DNA from: a virus
Virus record (IMG/VR): IMGVR_UViG_3300028384_000119
Span: 1 to 26,930 of that record
DNA: 26,930 bases
Direction: 5' to 3' (one strand)
Below are positions 13,342 through 18,969 of this stretch, one piece after another. A program made the position numbers and the translations under genes. The notes beneath the pieces are model-generated. The model worked only from the letters and a program-made list of their open reading frames with translations, was not told the origin of the DNA and did not search any database. Every line of letters starts with the position of its first letter. Position 1 is the stretch's first letter.

Positions 13342-13710
13342 TTACTGCAACCCAGCACGATGACGATCATGGTCAATAGTCCGTTGCTCCATGCGGTGGC
13401 GGAGTCTTGACTTGGATTCTTCTACCTGAGAAGTAGTGTCAATAGAAGTCTCAGGTTCTACTGATTCTTTCTTGACATCTTCGCCAGGTTCATACCACTT
13501 GCCATCACCATCAGAGTCCTGCCAACGCTTACCTGCTTTGGCTGCTTTGATGTGCTTTGCTTTCTTCTTGGCATCCTCACGCAACGATTCGATGTTGCCT
13601 TGGATACGATTTCTAATGGATTCAGACATGAGATCTTCTTTCTTAGGGTTAATAGTGACTTTACCGACCTTCTTAGTCTGAGTCACTTCTTTGTTTGAAT
13701 CGGGTTTCAT
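13342..13710 (-). CDS. Basic protein with an EF-hand-like loop
   Basis: A 122-residue, highly charged protein. After a Lys-rich region (ESLREDAKKKAKHIKAAKAG) comes RWQDSDGDGKWYEPGEDV at about 82-99, with the D-x-D-x-D-G spacing and acidic end of a calcium loop. The rest is low-complexity and the end is basic (RLRHRMEQRTIDHDRHRAG). It is coupled to the upstream 537-residue gene by ATGA, and the shared Lys-rich style suggests that both are virion or DNA-associated proteins. Family name unknown; calcium binding is inferred from the motif only. Confidence 0.65.
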   Translation of the reverse strand: MKPDSNKEVTQTKKVGKVTINPKKEDLMSESIRNRIQGNIESLREDAKKKAKHIKAAKAGKRWQDSDGDGKWYEPGEDVKKESVEPETSIDTTSQVEESKSRLRHRMEQRTIDHDRHRAGLQ

Positions 13711-15320
13711 TCCTCAATACCCATTTCTTTACGCCAGGAGTATGTAGTCTCCTCACTCATGCGTCTTGCAACGCCACGAGCACCACGGGAGACGGAGCGA
13801 GCAACTTTACCCACTACCTTCTTAATACCCGACTTAATCTTATCACGAAGTCCAGGACCTTTCTTTTCAGGAGCACTGCTACTGCCACCTGAGGAGGACG
13901 AGGAGGAGGATGCAGGGGTCACACCGCTTTCACCAGACTTACGACCAGTGGAAGCACCACCTTCACCTCTTTCTTTGCCAGCGGAATACTCACGCTTAGC
14001 AGCACCCACAGCACGCTTAGCGGCACCGTGAGCATAACCTGCTGCCTTAGCGGCACCCTTGCCTGCTGCCTTAATACCTTTCTTCACCATAGAACCAGCA
14101 GACTTCAATACTGCCTTCATCTTCTCACGACGAGCACCTGCTTCGGGTTTGTCAGCAGGTTTGTCGCCCAGTCGCTTACGTGCCTCAGCACCAGCATCTT
14201 TACCAGCACTCTGCCCTTCACCAGAAGCAGCAGATTGCTTGTTCTTCATACGAAGGGAAGCAACCTTAGCAGGATTGGTAACCTCAGTCAGGAGTTCCAT
14301 GTTATCGATGGAGTCCAGTGCCTCAGTCAGTAGTTCTTCATCCAGTTCTTGAAGTGCTTCGACACAGATTTCTTCGAGTTGCTCGAAGGTAAAAGTATCA
14401 AACTCTTCGTGGAGGATGATCTCTTCGATGAACTCATCCCATGCCTCAATATTGAGAGTCTTAGGATAGTCCTTGTCACCCTTCTTAGCAGGTGCTTCAC
14501 CACGCTTACGCTTGGCATGAATGTTTGCCCAGAGACCCTTCTTCTTCTCTTCGATAGTCTCTACTTCTTCCTTGTAATTACTACGTGCTTTCTCATCACC
14601 CATCTTCTTGAAACGCTCGTTCTCTTTTTGACGAGCGATAGCAGAGACAATCTTATTAGACTTGTTCAATGCATCTTCTTTCTTCTTACCTTTGGAAGAA
14701 AGTCCTGTGCGAGCAAGATTACCAGCACGGCGGTACATCTTGTTTTCCTTGGAGCGATCAATCTCCTTGTAACCTTCTTCAACTGTCTCTTCTTCTTTGA
14801 CACAGTTGGGAACTTCCTTACCGTTCTTCTTCTTAGTGCCTTTTGCCTTGTAACCATCCCAGCAAGTGGATGCACCGACATTCTTACGAGCCTGCTTCAA
14901 CCCTTCGACCATCTGCTGGTGTAGGTCTTCAATGTCAATGTGCTCACGCTGCATGTTCAGACCGAGATCAGAAGCAGCCTTGGCAGTCTTTTCCCCTTTC
15001 TTACCAACGACCTGATAACGACCATCAGACTTCAAACCAGTGATCACCATTGACTGACCACCTTGTGAGATCACTCTACCGATATTACGATCATCTTTGA
15101 ACTTTTGCTTGTTCTTGGAGATCAGATCCTTCTCGATCGGGAACCCTGCGTAACCTTCGACAACCTCTTCATGGTTCTCGATGATCTCAGTGACCTTTGC
15201 AACTGCATCTCTAAGGCGAGAAGTTGGTGCCTCCTTACCTTCCTTGACGCAACCAAGGATAGTTCTTTGCTCTGCCTCAGTAAACCCGAGCAGGGCAGCA
15301 GATACTTTAATGTCCAGCAT
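13707..15320 (-). CDS. Large basic, modular protein, probably in the virion
   Basis: A 537-residue protein of joined modules. The N-terminus (1-130) looks folded, with KSDGRYQVVGKKGEKT near 97. Residues 153-172 hold a CWDGYKAKGTKKKNGKEVPNC motif, a Cys-bounded knuckle seen in marine phage structural proteins. GLWANIHAKRKRGEAP at about 262-277 is another recurring cyanophage motif. An acidic helix follows (300-345), then an Ala/Lys/Gly-rich tail (400-450, e.g. KGIKAAGKGAAKAAG) like histone H1, a Ser/Gly linker, and a basic end finishing SWRKEMGIEE. A late-promoter octamer lies just upstream. I infer a DNA-binding or internal head protein; no enzyme motif is seen. Confidence 0.72.
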   Translation of the reverse strand: MLDIKVSAALLGFTEAEQRTILGCVKEGKEAPTSRLRDAVAKVTEIIENHEEVVEGYAGFPIEKDLISKNKQKFKDDRNIGRVISQGGQSMVITGLKSDGRYQVVGKKGEKTAKAASDLGLNMQREHIDIEDLHQQMVEGLKQARKNVGASTCWDGYKAKGTKKKNGKEVPNCVKEEETVEEGYKEIDRSKENKMYRRAGNLARTGLSSKGKKKEDALNKSNKIVSAIARQKENERFKKMGDEKARSNYKEEVETIEEKKKGLWANIHAKRKRGEAPAKKGDKDYPKTLNIEAWDEFIEEIILHEEFDTFTFEQLEEICVEALQELDEELLTEALDSIDNMELLTEVTNPAKVASLRMKNKQSAASGEGQSAGKDAGAEARKRLGDKPADKPEAGARREKMKAVLKSAGSMVKKGIKAAGKGAAKAAGYAHGAAKRAVGAAKREYSAGKERGEGGASTGRKSGESGVTPASSSSSSSGGSSSAPEKKGPGLRDKIKSGIKKVVGKVARSVSRGARGVARRMSEETTYSWRKEMGIEE

Positions 15321-15343: not shown

Positions 15344-16381
15344 CTATTTATTCTTGACAGATTTCCTGAACTCGGAGAACTTCTTAACTCCTTGTCCAGG
15401 GGTCATATTTTGAACTGCCTGACGGTATTTATCAGTACCAATTTTCCAGTCATTTCCGCTACCATCGTCAACAGAATAGTTGGACTGATCATTTACCTCA
15501 GTGATATGTTGCAACCATGCACGGTGCTCACCACCCAAACCATCTTCCATAATGATGTAGTTGGGACCACGGTGAACAATCTTACCTGACATACCAGTGT
15601 CATCATGCTCTACGATTGCACCGACTTTGAAGATGTGATCAAGCATATAGTAGTCACGGAAAGTATCATAATCTAACTTAGGTGCATACTCCCAAACAGA
15701 TTCTGCAACTGCTTTCTCTTTCTTCTTTGCCTTGGCAGCAGGTTTCTTCTTCTCAGGTGGTTTCATACCATCAATAACATGCTGCATGAGTTCTTTGGAC
15801 TTTTTATATCCACCAGAACCAGCATGGAACGAATCATGATCTCCACTCTGAGCATGTTTACGCATCTTGCTGGCAGAGAGAGTCTCGATAGGGTCATCAC
15901 TGTTATCATTACGAGCACCAGCAGACTTGATATTGATACTCTTAAAGTTGTAGTGCTTACCGTTGTACTTCTGAGTGAGATTTTCAAACTCTTTCACACG
16001 GTCATCACCCACAACCATAGTGACATGCTCATGTCCCTCATCATGGAGGTCACGAAGGATGTCAAAGATGTTACGGTGTTGCTCTGAGTTTTGAATAGCA
16101 TCAGCATGGTGCTTAAACATGCCACGCATGTGCTGAATCTTCTGCTCAGGATGCAGAGGATTCTTTTTATGATCTTGTGAACGAGAAGGATAGATACGGT
16201 AGTTACCAGAGTCACCAGCGTGTGACTTCACAGCATCCATCAACTTACCATGACCAGCATGGGGTGGGTTGAATCTTCCAAAGGTGATAGCAACATGCTT
16301 GTCAACTACCTCATTCTTCTTACCAGTTGCCTTCTTAGCAGCAGCTTGTGCTGCTTCGATGATAAATTGGCGGAATCTCAT
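15344..16381 (-). CDS. HxGH nucleotidyltransferase fused to a C-terminal KOW/SH3-like domain
   Basis: A 345-residue protein. Residues 30-175 form a cytidylyltransferase/NMN-adenylyltransferase-type Rossmann domain: ITFGRFNPPHAGHGKL with HAGH at 41-44, VGDDRV (125-130) and LSASKMR (168-174), the S-x-S-x-x-R-like motif. Such enzymes transfer AMP or CMP to a phosphate (NAD, CoA or lipid precursors). A Lys/Pro linker (205-225) joins a beta domain at about 250-296 (FKVGAIVEHDDTGMSGKIVH), like a KOW or SH3 fold. The first residues, MRFRQFIIEA, look like a head-associated tag. The ATG overlaps the ligase-like gene (ATGA). Substrate is not predictable by eye; NAD metabolism or protein/RNA modification are options. 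Confidence 0.8.
   Translation of the reverse strand: MRFRQFIIEAAQAAAKKATGKKNEVVDKHVAITFGRFNPPHAGHGKLMDAVKSHAGDSGNYRIYPSRSQDHKKNPLHPEQKIQHMRGMFKHHADAIQNSEQHRNIFDILRDLHDEGHEHVTMVVGDDRVKEFENLTQKYNGKHYNFKSINIKSAGARNDNSDDPIETLSASKMRKHAQSGDHDSFHAGSGGYKKSKELMQHVIDGMKPPEKKKPAAKAKKKEKAVAESVWEYAPKLDYDTFRDYYMLDHIFKVGAIVEHDDTGMSGKIVHRGPNYIIMEDGLGGEHRAWLQHITEVNDQSNYSVDDGSGNDWKIGTDKYRQAVQNMTPGQGVKKFSEFRKSVKNK
15345..15352 (-). promoter_or_regulatory. Late-promoter-like octamer AATAAATA
   Basis: On the minus strand it overlaps the stop codon of the HxGH gene and ends 25 bases before the ATG of the 537-residue gene. It matches NATAAATA and would allow separate late expression of the basic protein. Confidence 0.5.
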
Positions 16382-17571
16382 TTGCCCCAGTCTTTTGCTA
16401 CGGTGAAGTTTGCCCGAGAGAATTCAAGTCTATCAACAAGTTTGACAGCAGTGCCATCCTTGATGGCCACAAATCCTTCTGGACTAGTGACCTTGTATCC
16501 ATTTTCATCTTCAAGGAACGTACCAACTCCTTCGATACGTTTGAGTTTATTTATGATTTGTTCCTTGGCGTTGATCAGATTACTGAACCCCGACAAGGTA
16601 GCATAAATAACACTCTGATTACTATTTAGGTATTTCAAGGCGTCGTCCCTTTTCTTGGACCAGTCTTTCTTTGCTTTCTCAGTCTTCTTCTTACCAATCT
16701 CTTTCTCATAGCGATCGTTCACAAACTTCTTAAATCCAGCAGACATCTGTGCAGCACTGGAAGGGATACGACCAGTTTTGATGATGGCATTGAAGTAAAT
16801 CTTGAACATGGCAGCGTAGTCCATGGTCTTAGTGCCACCACCGATAGCATTCAGGAAGTTACGACCACGAGCAAGGTTTGTTTTAGCAACACGCATACTG
16901 TTATTCAGTCGATTCTTTTCAGAGGCACTGAGATTTGCTGCTCCATTGATGTTCTGGAATTCAGCAGAAAAGACTGCAACATCAGAGTTGCCTTGAAGAC
17001 CAGACACGTCAACACCAAAACTACTAGATAGATCCTGAATTGATGCACCAGAATAAGAAGTGTGAAAAACAATACCGAGATTAGATGCTGCAACTTTCTT
17101 ACCCATCTCTGTGTCTTTCTCTACACAATATGTGATGGTGTTTGGTTTGAACTTATAACACTTCTTACCACCCATGCTCACCAAGGGAGGAGTACCAACA
17201 TAAAGAAGATCACCTTGAAGAACACCCTTAATGGGAAGAGTCTTCAACACGTTAAATGATTGGATCAGTTTATCTTTGATCGGATGGTCTCCATAGAAAT
17301 ACTCAATCTGTTCCACAGAGAAACATGCTTTACTGTCCTTTGCAAAGACAGACTTAGTACCCACAAAGAAGTCACCAGACTCAGGATCCTTACCACAGAT
17401 CAGAGCAGGGGCACCGTCCCACTTGACAGTAACTTTGGTGTTGCCACCACCACTACCAGTGGACAACATCTCACGAAGAGATTCTAAAAAGTTAATAGCA
17501 TTCTGAGCACCTGCATATCCATTGTTAAAGATATCATCTTCCAGGTGTTCTAGGTGTGTGTTCTTTGCCAT
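16378..17571 (-). CDS. Divergent ligase-like nucleotidyltransferase (KWDG protein)
   Basis: A 397-residue protein of a family usually left as unknown in cyanophages. By eye it carries the covalent nucleotidyltransferase motifs of DNA/RNA ligases and capping enzymes in order: motif I VKWDGAPA (Lys50 as the AMP-carrying residue), FFVGTKSVF near 68-76, motif III-like VLQGDLLYV (117-125), a IIIa-like GIVFHTSYS (166-174), motif IV-like EGFVAIKDG (365-373) and motif V-like AVKLVD (375-380). A helical region of about 170 residues splits motifs IIIa and IV, which is unusual. It is coupled on both sides (TAATG from the 455-residue gene, ATGA to the HxGH gene). No OB domain is obvious. Ligase, RNA-repair or adenylating activity is an inference. 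Confidence 0.75.
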   Translation of the reverse strand: MAKNTHLEHLEDDIFNNGYAGAQNAINFLESLREMLSTGSGGGNTKVTVKWDGAPALICGKDPESGDFFVGTKSVFAKDSKACFSVEQIEYFYGDHPIKDKLIQSFNVLKTLPIKGVLQGDLLYVGTPPLVSMGGKKCYKFKPNTITYCVEKDTEMGKKVAASNLGIVFHTSYSGASIQDLSSSFGVDVSGLQGNSDVAVFSAEFQNINGAANLSASEKNRLNNSMRVAKTNLARGRNFLNAIGGGTKTMDYAAMFKIYFNAIIKTGRIPSSAAQMSAGFKKFVNDRYEKEIGKKKTEKAKKDWSKKRDDALKYLNSNQSVIYATLSGFSNLINAKEQIINKLKRIEGVGTFLEDENGYKVTSPEGFVAIKDGTAVKLVDRLEFSRANFTVAKDWGK

Positions 17572-18938
17572 TAGATTTGAATTCCAATTACGTCCTGGTA
17601 GTCGTTGAAAGAGTTCTTTTGTCTAAGTTTTGCTTTCTTCCCTGATGGGATGTTGGCATAGGTCATGATCTCACAGAGAGGCACTCCATTTCGGATTGCC
17701 ATCTTAGTATATACCACTTTTTTCAGAACAAACTCCTTGAAGAGCGGTAGGAAGTCAAGGATCCCGTCGTCATTAGCAGCGATAATCGCTTTCTCTGCTG
17801 CCCAAGAGAAGTTCTGCATCGAGTAATTCGGAGACTTCTTAGGAGCAAATTGATCAATGAACTCCCTTGCCTGCGCTTCATCCTTACCCCTCCCCAGGAC
17901 CTTCCCGATCGGATCTTTCTTATTGAAGGAAGCAGCATTGATTTTGCGAACGATGTCGTTTGGTTGTGTAAACATACTAGCGTAGGCACCCTTGAACTGG
18001 GGGTACTTCTGTGCCAGATTCAGGACTGCCACAACATGTCCAGCGTATGCTGGTTTCGTGTTGTCAATATCCTTAAAGACGTTCAGTGCCTCTTGCACCT
18101 GCTTCCTGGTGCTCCCCGCAAAAGGACCTTCCTCATACACCTCAAAGAATGTGGATGGTTTGACAGTATTAGTAGCAGCAGAGTCCAATGCTTTCACACT
18201 AAATCCATAACTATTGCTTCTGGCACTTTTCTTCATGTAAAAGTCCACTAGTGGTTCGTTACCACGAATGGGAAGATTGATCTTTGCCTTAGACTTATCA
18301 AACTTATATGGTTCTGTCTTAGATTCTTTATCGTAAAGGAAACAAATGGGAGCAATGATCTCACCAAAGTCATTGATCACATCTTTCATGTTTGGAATGT
18401 ATGGTGCTGCATTTTTATAGACTCTGGCAAGTTCACTGCCAGTGCATTCACCATCAAAATACTTCAAGATACACACAAGATAGTGTTTGAGTTGCATAGT
18501 CATGTCTTCACGACCCATGACTGCCTTCTCAACCACATCAATGTAGTCATTATATGAGAAATACTTGGTGTCATGTGCAACACCAGGGAATGATTGGGGT
18601 TTCAGATCAACTCTCCTCACCTCGCTTGGGGAGCGTTGTCCATTACCGTATGTAATCTTAGTAACATTAAATCTCTCTTCGAGATTACGTTTGTACTTGG
18701 CATCAGAGAGATCTCCATACCAAGCACGACATATGTTCCTAGCAACTTTCACTGCTGCATCTTTGTCAGCAGCAATAGCAATAGGATCTGTGTAATAAGG
18801 AACGTCTGGGGACAGTGTGTCTTGAACTTCTTGATAAACTCTTTGGAGATCGTCAATACGTTGCTTACTGACCCCAGTTTCTGTCAGCACAGTTTTAATT
18901 TCCTGTTTAGATTTTGGAATAAAAGTAAACTGTGCCAA
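17571..18938 (-). CDS. Large hypothetical protein, 455 residues, TTG start
   Basis: Not recognised. It is a soluble protein without catalytic motif that I can name. The first part is helical (KQEIKTVLTETGVSKQRIDD), followed by YYTDPIAIAADKDAAVKVARN; the middle is mixed, and the end is basic (IPSGKKAKLRQKNSFNDYQ). A TGA lies one codon after the frame's nearest upstream possibility, so no ATG is available upstream; TTG at 18938 (MAQFTFIPKS) is the natural start. A GATAAATA octamer lies 24 bases upstream. It precedes the ligase-like gene with a TAATG overlap, so the two may work together. Confidence 0.72.
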   Translation of the reverse strand: MAQFTFIPKSKQEIKTVLTETGVSKQRIDDLQRVYQEVQDTLSPDVPYYTDPIAIAADKDAAVKVARNICRAWYGDLSDAKYKRNLEERFNVTKITYGNGQRSPSEVRRVDLKPQSFPGVAHDTKYFSYNDYIDVVEKAVMGREDMTMQLKHYLVCILKYFDGECTGSELARVYKNAAPYIPNMKDVINDFGEIIAPICFLYDKESKTEPYKFDKSKAKINLPIRGNEPLVDFYMKKSARSNSYGFSVKALDSAATNTVKPSTFFEVYEEGPFAGSTRKQVQEALNVFKDIDNTKPAYAGHVVAVLNLAQKYPQFKGAYASMFTQPNDIVRKINAASFNKKDPIGKVLGRGKDEAQAREFIDQFAPKKSPNYSMQNFSWAAEKAIIAANDDGILDFLPLFKEFVLKKVVYTKMAIRNGVPLCEIMTYANIPSGKKAKLRQKNSFNDYQDVIGIQI

Positions 18939-18961: not shown

Positions 18962-18969
18962 TATTTATC
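18962..18969 (-). promoter_or_regulatory. Late-promoter-like octamer GATAAATA
   Basis: One base from TATAAATA on the minus strand. It overlaps the stop of the 106-residue gene and ends 24 bases before the TTG of the 455-residue gene. It would open the late block of the ligase-like and HxGH genes. Confidence 0.5.

What the first reader, a model, noticed from the sequence alone, without database searches (positions are those of the whole stretch)
16378..18938. A ligase-like KWDG nucleotidyltransferase translationally coupled to a HxGH nucleotidyltransferase and an unknown 455-residue protein
Three genes overlap stop to start (TAATG, then ATGA). The middle product has, in the right order, motifs matching covalent nucleotidyltransferases: KWDG (50-53), QGDLLYV (119-125), EGFVAIK (365-371) and VKLV (376-379). 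The last product has HAGH and a S-x-S-x-x-R-like motif of adenylyl/cytidylyl transferases, plus a KOW-like domain. A late-promoter octamer precedes the group. Families like these are usually listed as unknown in cyanophages. Hypothesis: a late nucleotide-transfer system, such as RNA/DNA end repair, or NAD-linked or AMP-linked modification of a virion or host component. Order and motifs are seen; activity is inferred.
Basis: partly seen in the sequence, partly recalled or inferred. Interest (0 to 1): 0.75.

Follow-up and report, generated by a model that had tools for sequence, protein, structure and literature searches.

The report
Ligase-like protein beside packaged phage nucleotidyltransferase
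Ocean viruses of cyanobacteria carry a conserved late gene set: an uncharacterised protein that looks like a very divergent RNA/DNA ligase, next to a nucleotide-transferring enzyme that bears the address label used to pack proteins into the virus head, which suggests a nucleic-acid end-repair kit partly delivered with the viral DNA.

Summary
The middle protein is Pfam DUF6267, for which no paper was found in the library searched. AlphaFold gives a confident model (pLDDT 91). Foldseek against the PDB gives no significant match, but 17 of the 50 best are ligases or capping enzymes. Ligase-like is therefore likely, but activity is unshown. The second Lys of motif V (KxK) is missing.

The downstream HxGH nucleotidyltransferase is always the next gene in three cyanophage clades (203/203 loci) and is sometimes fused to DUF6267. 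Two of these clades (134/134) carry an N-terminus matching T4's capsid-targeting sequence (MKTYQEFIAEA; window MRFRQFIIEA). Homologues were found in virions of several cyanophages, including S-SZBM1 (79.6% identical). In other marine phages it is fused to a polymerase-beta nucleotidyltransferase, a kinase or PAP2.

The 455-aa protein belongs to one of several unalignable families directly upstream of DUF6267 that share an invariant D...SxK (one ExK) pattern. It is nuclease-like at best.

Best reading: a late nucleic-acid end-repair-type module with at least one enzyme packaged in the head. Substrate and activity are inferred.

The parts
17571..18938 (-). 455-aa protein, first gene of the late operon; TTG start; D...SxK type, PD-(D/E)XK nuclease-like at best
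   Evidence: no Pfam/NCBIfam family; AF2 pLDDT 84.8; E193, D232, S247, K249, K412 invariant in 28 homologues; Foldseek PDB not significant
18192..18245 (-). D232...S247-x-K249 segment of the 455-aa protein
   Evidence: same pattern in the other upstream families
16378..17571 (-). 397-aa DUF6267 protein (PF19782, E 2.4e-125), ligase-like covalent nucleotidyltransferase candidate
17413..17424 (-). motif I KWDG (residues 50-53), candidate adenylylated lysine K50
   Evidence: invariant in 118 homologues
17344..17367 (-). FVGTKSVF (69-76), motif Ia-like; F69 and K73 invariant (cf. FKSKGSI of T4 Rnl1)
17206..17217 (-). motif III-like QGDL (119-122); D121 in place of the usual E
   Evidence: on strand 117-125 of the model
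16468..16479 (-). motif IV EGFV (365-368)
   Evidence: E365, G366 invariant; cf. EGYVAVMKDG of T4 Rnl1
16435..16443 (-). motif V KLV (377-379); K377 invariant, second Lys of KxK replaced by Val
15344..16381 (-). 345-aa HIGH-superfamily nucleotidyltransferase (CTP_transf_like PF01467, E 1.7e-7; phrog_395)
   Evidence: 79.6% identical homologue found in the S-SZBM1 virion by MS (PMC9146016 Table 1)
16352..16381 (-). N-terminal capsid-targeting-like sequence MRFRQFIIE|A, predicted prohead-protease cut after E9
   Evidence: T4 IPII/IPIII MKTYQEFIAEA
16250..16261 (-). HAGH (41-44), HIGH-type nucleotide-binding motif
   Evidence: G43, H44 invariant in 9 diverse homologues
15860..15877 (-). SASKMR (169-174), SxSxxR motif of NMNAT/cytidylyltransferases
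   Evidence: S169, R174 invariant
15485..15667 (-). C-terminal KOW/SH3-like domain (about residues 239-299), a separate small gene in S-CAM4 and S-PM2 types
   Evidence: phrog_4808 match
18962..18968 (-). ATAAATA late-promoter core 24 nt upstream of the 455-aa start
15345..15351 (-). ATAAATA late-promoter core 25 nt upstream of the next gene (537 aa)
13707..15320 (-). 537-aa neighbour; homologue S-SZBM1_139 is a virion protein

Best explanation
The genes form a late module whose likely job is to heal or join broken nucleic-acid ends (RNA, for example cleaved tRNA, or DNA), with part of the kit carried in the virus head. (1) The 397-aa DUF6267 protein most likely has the nucleotidyltransferase fold of ligases and capping enzymes: K50 would take AMP from ATP or NAD+ and pass it to a 5' phosphate end. 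(2) The 345-aa HIGH-type nucleotidyltransferase is targeted into the prohead by a T4-type capsid-targeting sequence, probably trimmed after E9 by the prohead protease, and would enter the cell with the DNA; it works with DUF6267, to which it is fused in some phages. (3) The 455-aa protein is a nuclease-like D...SxK protein that could process ends first. Shown: sequence, motif invariance, gene order, fusion, late promoter, targeting-like N-terminus, virion presence of homologues (literature). Inferred: fold assignment, adenylylation, ejection into the host, end repair as the function, and the substrate.
For: DUF6267: catalytic-motif residues invariant in 118 homologues; AF2 pLDDT 91.4 with motifs I, III, IV and V on or at strands in canonical order and a helical insert between III and IV; 17 of the top 50 PDB fold matches are covalent nucleotidyltransferases (NAD+ DNA ligases, vaccinia capping enzyme, T4 Rnl2, TbREL1, human LigIV), whereas the 455-aa model searched the same way shows no such clustering; first annotated BFVD hits after the family's own members include two RNA ligases; T4 Rnl1 EGYVAVMKDGSHFKIK against EGFVAIKDGTAVKLV. 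Partnership: phrog_455 spans both proteins; S-PM2 fuses them in one 591-aa protein; HIGH gene directly downstream in 203/203 loci; 23/25 long DUF6267 records carry it. Packaging: targeting-like N-terminus in 68/68 and 66/66 loci of two clades, 186/316 HIGH ORFs against 23/907 controls; positions 4, 7, 8 and 10 are those that matter in T4 (PMC9026906); in S-CREM2 5 of 6 ORFs with the T4-spaced pattern are MS-detected virion proteins (hypergeometric p 0.003); HIGH homologues reported in virions of S-SM1 (T4-GC190, PMC3037559), S-SZBM1, S-CREM2, S-SCSM1 and S-CBWM1. Repair context: HIGH homologues elsewhere are fused to a polymerase-beta nucleotidyltransferase (26/75 ORFs) and in one case to an AAA_33/polynucleotide-kinase-like domain; some DUF6267 proteins carry their own targeting-like N-terminus.
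Against: No significant fold match (best PDB E 0.59) and no significant profile match to Rnl1, Rnl2, DNA ligase or LigA; the profile test is uninformative, since Rnl1 against DNA ligase or LigA scored no better. Motif III has D instead of E and motif V lacks the second Lys. DUF6267 and the 455-aa homologue are not in the S-SZBM1 virion list, nor is DUF6267 in that of S-CREM2. The S-CAM4 clade (0/69) has no targeting sequence on the HIGH protein. In S-SZBM1 two other annotated genes with the pattern (_191, _192) are not in the virion list. The HIGH enzyme's substrate is unknown; none of the NMNAT models that hit it reached its cut-off. CsCl-purified virions can carry contaminants, as the cited authors note.
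Confidence: 0.5

Rival explanations
1. Metabolic reading (published): the HIGH enzyme is an NMN adenylyltransferase that raises host NAD+; a variant is that DUF6267 is an NAD+-dependent ligase whose released NMN is turned back into NAD+ by its neighbour.
For: GRFNPPHAGH and SASKMR motifs; weak NadD/NadR model hits and phrog_3462 NMN adenylyltransferase on homologues; several papers call it NMNAT; NAD+ ligases are the commonest ligase type among the fold matches; DUF6267 has an invariant His/Glu-rich N-terminal segment, placed where LigA carries its NMN-binding domain (own knowledge).
Against: NCBIfam NMNAT models far below cut-off (23 against 112 bits); best profile hit in the PDB is UPF0348/MJ0951, not an NMNAT; explains neither the constant pairing with DUF6267 nor the polymerase-beta fusions by itself.
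Confidence: 0.2
2. Late morphogenesis factor: DUF6267 is made late and acts in virion assembly or DNA packaging, as T4 gp63 (Rnl1) also promotes tail-fibre attachment, without a repair role.
For: Late promoter and late-operon position; neighbours are virion proteins; DUF6267 itself not detected in virions; T4 gp63 is dual-function (annotation).
Against: Invariant catalytic residues imply an enzyme; compact forms lie far from structural genes in other phages; does not explain fusions to end-processing domains.
Confidence: 0.15
3. Counter-defence by capping or adenylylation: the module modifies host or phage RNA 5' ends or proteins rather than joining ends.
For: The fold class includes capping enzymes (vaccinia capping enzyme ranks 2 and 5); HIGH enzymes make adenylylated products; packaging suits action in the first minutes of infection.
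Against: No methyltransferase or OB-fold capping domain found; polymerase-beta and kinase-like fusions fit end healing better.
Confidence: 0.1
4. DUF6267 only resembles a ligase in its motifs and is a different, possibly inactive fold used as a scaffold or chaperone for packaging its partner.
For: No significant fold or profile match; incomplete motif V.
Against: Strict invariance of Lys, Asp, Glu and Lys over 25-76% identity; ligase enrichment among the fold matches.
Confidence: 0.15

Closest known systems
T4 RNA ligase 1 (gp63, Rnl1) and Rnl2; covalent nucleotidyltransferase superfamily
   Same: KxDG, a K-containing motif Ia, EG[YF]VA motif IV followed 12-13 residues later by the motif V Lys; late phage context
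   Different: No Pfam ligase model among the best-matching families of 118 members; D for E in motif III; V for the second Lys of motif V; about 130-residue helical insert between motifs III and IV; paired with a HIGH enzyme; activity unknown
T4 internal proteins IPI-IPIII and Alt (capsid-targeting sequence)
   Same: N-terminal MK[x][FY]xxF[IL]xEA pattern and virion presence of homologues of the 345-aa protein
   Different: The cargo is a nucleotidyltransferase, not a small basic protein or ADP-ribosyltransferase; cleavage and ejection not shown
Phage NMN adenylyltransferases (NadM, NadR; HIGH superfamily)
   Same: HIGH fold and motifs; already annotated as cytidylyltransferase or NMNAT in cyanophages
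   Different: No Nudix or kinase NAD-salvage architecture; NMNAT models below cut-off; capsid-targeting N-terminus and KOW-like tail
Phage RNA-repair sets (Pnkp, Rnl, RNA-ligase-associated Pol-beta, as in T4 and jumbo phages, PMC7824862)
   Same: Ligase-like protein linked with a polymerase-beta nucleotidyltransferase and a kinase-like domain in related phages
   Different: Different ligase-like family; includes a HIGH enzyme; partly packaged in the head; Pfam labels the Pol-beta domain NTP_transf_2/Polbeta, not RlaP

Membership tests
Covalent nucleotidyltransferase superfamily (DNA/RNA ligases, capping enzymes) | Motif I KxDG | tested here: met
   K50, D52, G53 invariant in 118 homologues
Covalent nucleotidyltransferase superfamily (DNA/RNA ligases, capping enzymes) | Motif IV EGxV | tested here: met
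   E365, G366 invariant, V368 nearly so
Covalent nucleotidyltransferase superfamily (DNA/RNA ligases, capping enzymes) | Motif III acidic residue on a strand | tested here: inconclusive
   QGD with D121 nearly invariant, but D rather than E
Covalent nucleotidyltransferase superfamily (DNA/RNA ligases, capping enzymes) | Motif V KxK | tested here: not met
   K377 invariant, but the second Lys is V379
Covalent nucleotidyltransferase superfamily (DNA/RNA ligases, capping enzymes) | Adenylation-domain fold | tested here: inconclusive
   Confident model; 17 of top 50 PDB matches are ligases or capping enzymes but none significant
Covalent nucleotidyltransferase superfamily (DNA/RNA ligases, capping enzymes) | Lysine-nucleotidylate activity | not testable with these tools
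   needs purified protein
T4 Rnl1 / Rnl2 / RNA_ligase Pfam families | Match to the family model or profile | tested here: not met
   No ligase model among the 25 best-matching Pfam families for 118 members; hhalign P 0.04 for Rnl1, 0.38-0.51 for Rnl2
HIGH-superfamily nucleotidyltransferase (345-aa protein) | HxGH and SxSxxR motifs, CTP_transf_like match over the curated cut-off | tested here: met
   31.9 bits against 21; motifs conserved
NMN adenylyltransferase (NadD/NadM/NadR) | Match over an equivalog cut-off | tested here: not met
   TIGR00482 23.4 against 112.45 bits, TIGR01526 18 against 341
T4-type capsid-targeted internal protein (345-aa protein) | N-terminal targeting sequence | tested here: met
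   MRFRQFIIEA, one residue shorter than T4; conserved in 134/134 loci of two clades
T4-type capsid-targeted internal protein (345-aa protein) | Presence in the virion | not testable with these tools
   shown for homologues by published MS, not for this phage
T4-type capsid-targeted internal protein (345-aa protein) | Cleavage by the prohead protease and ejection into the host | not testable with these tools
   needs N-terminal peptide mass spectrometry and ejection assays
PD-(D/E)XK nuclease-like (455-aa protein) | E...D...(D/E)xK core | tested here: inconclusive
   E193, D232, S247xK249 invariant; Ser in place of D/E as in Cfr10I-type enzymes (own knowledge)
PD-(D/E)XK nuclease-like (455-aa protein) | Fold match | tested here: inconclusive
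   no significant Foldseek match; Wolbachia CinA/CinB complex ranks 1 (E 0.54), R.SwaI ranks 41

The most novel reading that the evidence does not exclude
Marine T4-like phages carry a virion-delivered nucleic-acid repair kit built on a previously unrecognised ligase family (DUF6267): a nuclease-like protein, a ligase-like protein and a packaged HIGH nucleotidyltransferase (elsewhere fused to a polymerase-beta nucleotidyltransferase and a kinase-like domain) that act on tRNA or DNA ends broken by host defence in the first minutes of infection.
Probability: 0.3. Interest if true: 0.85.

Novelty: new variant of a known kind. Interest (0 to 1): 0.66.

Why it matters
The HIGH gene is in the core genome of 16 sequenced T4-like cyanophages (PMC3037559), and DUF6267 sits beside it in the clades examined here, yet DUF6267 has no assigned function. 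Reading DUF6267 as ligase-like gives a concrete residue (K50) to test. Recognising the T4-type targeting sequence in cyanophages offers an explanation for why 'metabolic' enzymes keep appearing in cyanophage virion proteomes, and predicts which proteins are injected; in S-CREM2 it picks out the SAM hydrolase, the APH-like kinase and the nucleotidyltransferase.

Tried and rejected
Profile-profile comparison of DUF6267 with Rnl1, Rnl2, RNA_ligase, ATP DNA ligase and LigA profiles: not significant; reversed profiles and known-homologue controls showed the test to be uninformative. Pfam scan of 118 DUF6267 members up to E 10: no ligase model among the 25 best-matching families shown. PDB sequence searches of all three proteins: nothing useful, except HIGH profile to UPF0348/MJ0951, E 1.9e-5. 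Literature search for DUF6267: no papers. A regular expression for Pol-beta motifs missed the fused domains and was replaced by an HMM. Considered and set aside: host-derived auxiliary metabolic gene as the whole story; DUF6267 as a cellular family (the bacterial contigs that hit it are mostly MAG contigs and look like phage); RlaP membership of the Pol-beta domain (no RlaP Pfam hit).
Full report
Observation. Three - strand genes overlap as described: 455 aa at 17571-18938 (TTG start, no in-frame ATG upstream), 397 aa at 16378-17571 (TAATG junction), 345 aa at 15344-16381 (ATGA junction). All quoted motifs are present. The third gene lies outside the given interval.

Families. The 397-aa protein is Pfam DUF6267 (E 2.4e-125) and phrog_455; the 345-aa protein is CTP_transf_like (E 1.7e-7) and phrog_395; the 455-aa protein matches no Pfam or NCBIfam family. 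phrog_455 is 764 positions long: its columns 22-341 match the 397-aa and its columns 403-720 the 345-aa protein, the trace of natural fusions such as S-PM2d138 (591 aa) and others in BFVD. No paper in the library names DUF6267.

Distribution and order. DUF6267 is found in 468 phage records, mostly T4-like cyanophages, but also Pelagibacter, Methylophilales, Vibrio, Pseudoalteromonas and Stenotrophomonas phages and a Xanthomonas jumbo phage. The HIGH gene has nearly the same organism spread plus other large phages. In three cyanophage clades the HIGH gene starts within 150 nt of DUF6267 in all 203 loci with enough sequence. 23 of 25 long DUF6267 records carry it; the two without are 146 and 92 kb records that may be fragments. 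In compact forms (about 300 aa; ACG-2014f, S-SCSM1, S-CREM2) the two genes are far apart.

Is DUF6267 ligase-like? In 118 diverse homologues the invariant residues are H6 H9 E11 K50 D52 G53 G60 F69 K73 Q119 N144 Y148 T171 N261 K336 E365 G366 K377; D121 is nearly invariant. K50/D52/G53, E365/G366 and K377 are the ligase motif positions, and K73 falls where T4 Rnl1 has its SKG motif Ia. None of 19 control families shows an invariant KxDG...EG...K. AlphaFold2 with this alignment gives pLDDT 91.4, pTM 0.87; strands 45-50, 56-61, 68-71, 117-125, 165-174, 366-371 and 374-378 carry or flank the motifs, and a helical block at 216-344 lies between motifs III and IV. Foldseek against the PDB finds nothing at E <= 0.001, yet 17 of the 50 best matches are covalent nucleotidyltransferases of several distinct families; the 455-aa model searched the same way shows no such clustering, so it serves as a rough control. 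In BFVD the first annotated hits after the family's own members include two RNA ligases. Profile comparisons are not significant, but known ligase families mostly fail to find one another with the same profiles. Differences from known ligases: D in motif III, V in place of the second Lys of motif V. I therefore call it ligase-like and do not file it as a member of Rnl1, Rnl2 or any named ligase family.

The HIGH protein is capsid-targeted. T4 IPII and IPIII begin MKTYQEFIAEA; residues 4 and 7 drive targeting and 8 and 10 processing (PMC9026906). P-SSM4 MKKFSAFLKEA, S-CREM2 MKNFSSFLTEA and S-CRM01 MKLFNQFFKEA match at exactly these positions; the window's MRFRQFIIEA matches with one residue fewer. 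The pattern is in 68/68 and 66/66 loci of two clades, 0/69 of the S-CAM4 clade, and 186/316 HIGH ORFs against 23/907 controls; it is the only such ORF in the window. Published mass spectrometry finds the HIGH protein in virions of S-SM1 (T4-GC190; PMC3037559), S-SZBM1 (S-SZBM1_140, 79.6% identical; PMC9146016), S-CREM2 (PMC10665884), S-SCSM1 and S-CBWM1 (PMC9602691). None of the passages I read explains how it gets there. As a test, the whole S-CREM2 genome has six ORFs with the T4-spaced pattern and five are in its virion list: SAM hydrolase gp6, gp13, APH-like kinase gp14, gp136 and the HIGH protein gp154 (p 0.003). In S-SZBM1 only one of three annotated genes with the pattern is in the list, so replication is partial. 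DUF6267 homologues are not in either list; in other phages DUF6267 itself often bears the pattern.

What surrounds it elsewhere. In non-cyanophage marine phages the HIGH domain is part of 750-1131-aa proteins with a polymerase-beta nucleotidyltransferase (GSILTKxYRxDADLDINILFD; 26 of 75 ORFs), an AAA_33/polynucleotide-kinase-like domain (L272) or PAP2, some starting MRFKDFIKES. S-CREM2 gp156, two genes after the HIGH gene and in the virion list, is a polymerase-beta protein (PF01909, E 3.4e-4). These partners suggest nucleic-acid end healing.

The 455-aa protein. Its homologues share invariant E193, D232, S247xK249 and K412; the model (pLDDT 84.8) places E193 in a helix followed by three strands, as in PD-(D/E)XK folds, but no fold match is significant. 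Directly upstream of DUF6267 sit other families that do not align with it; all eight with at least three non-redundant members have an invariant D-x(n)-SxK or, once, ExK, against 1/19 (SxK) or 3/19 ([SED]xK) control families. A nuclease-like role is a guess with some support.

Expression. The ATAAATA late-promoter core lies 24 nt upstream of the 455-aa gene and, across loci, upstream of the first gene only.

Verdict. A real, conserved late module with one head-packaged enzyme and one unrecognised ligase-like protein. That the HIGH protein is in virions was known; the targeting sequence, the ligase-like reading of DUF6267, the D...SxK partner and the repair context are what this analysis adds. 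Activity, substrate and ejection are untested.

Noticed in passing
S-CREM2 OR473000: 3837-5081, 10310-10546, 10579-12846, 107301-108014, 124608-125468: T4-type capsid-targeting-like N-termini on virion-detected SAM hydrolase, gp13, APH-like kinase, gp136 and cytidylyltransferase; this may explain why these enzymes occur in the virion and predicts they are ejected.
   Followed up: partly
S-SZBM1 OL473597: 122311-122628 and 122628-123125 (SSZBM1_191, _192): Two small genes next to a virion structural gene begin MKSFKSFLSES and MKTFKQYITEA, targeting-like, but are not in the published virion list.
   Followed up: no
window 13707-15320 and homologues (S-SZBM1_139, S-CAM4 gp095, S-PM2d142, P-SSM4 156): A recurring motif like [ST]CWxGYKxxGxKxKxGKxVxNCVK appears in several different proteins just downstream of the module, at least one of which is a virion protein.
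   Followed up: no
S-CAM4 NC_031900 149014-149271; metaG-MbCM1 NC_019443 145359-146258: Misannotations: the KOW-like small gene is labelled ribonucleotide reductase alpha subunit, and a DUF6267 protein is labelled NrdB.
   Followed up: partly
loci L266, L306, L308, L416, L421: Long HIGH-domain proteins also carry DUF5824 and, in places, PAP2 and DUF7417 domains, like multi-domain injected polyvalent proteins.
   Followed up: partly
NC_000866 73952-74410 (T4 gene 57B): The T4 RefSeq record labels the 152-aa 57B product 'RNA ligase', next to ipI; basis unclear.
   Followed up: no
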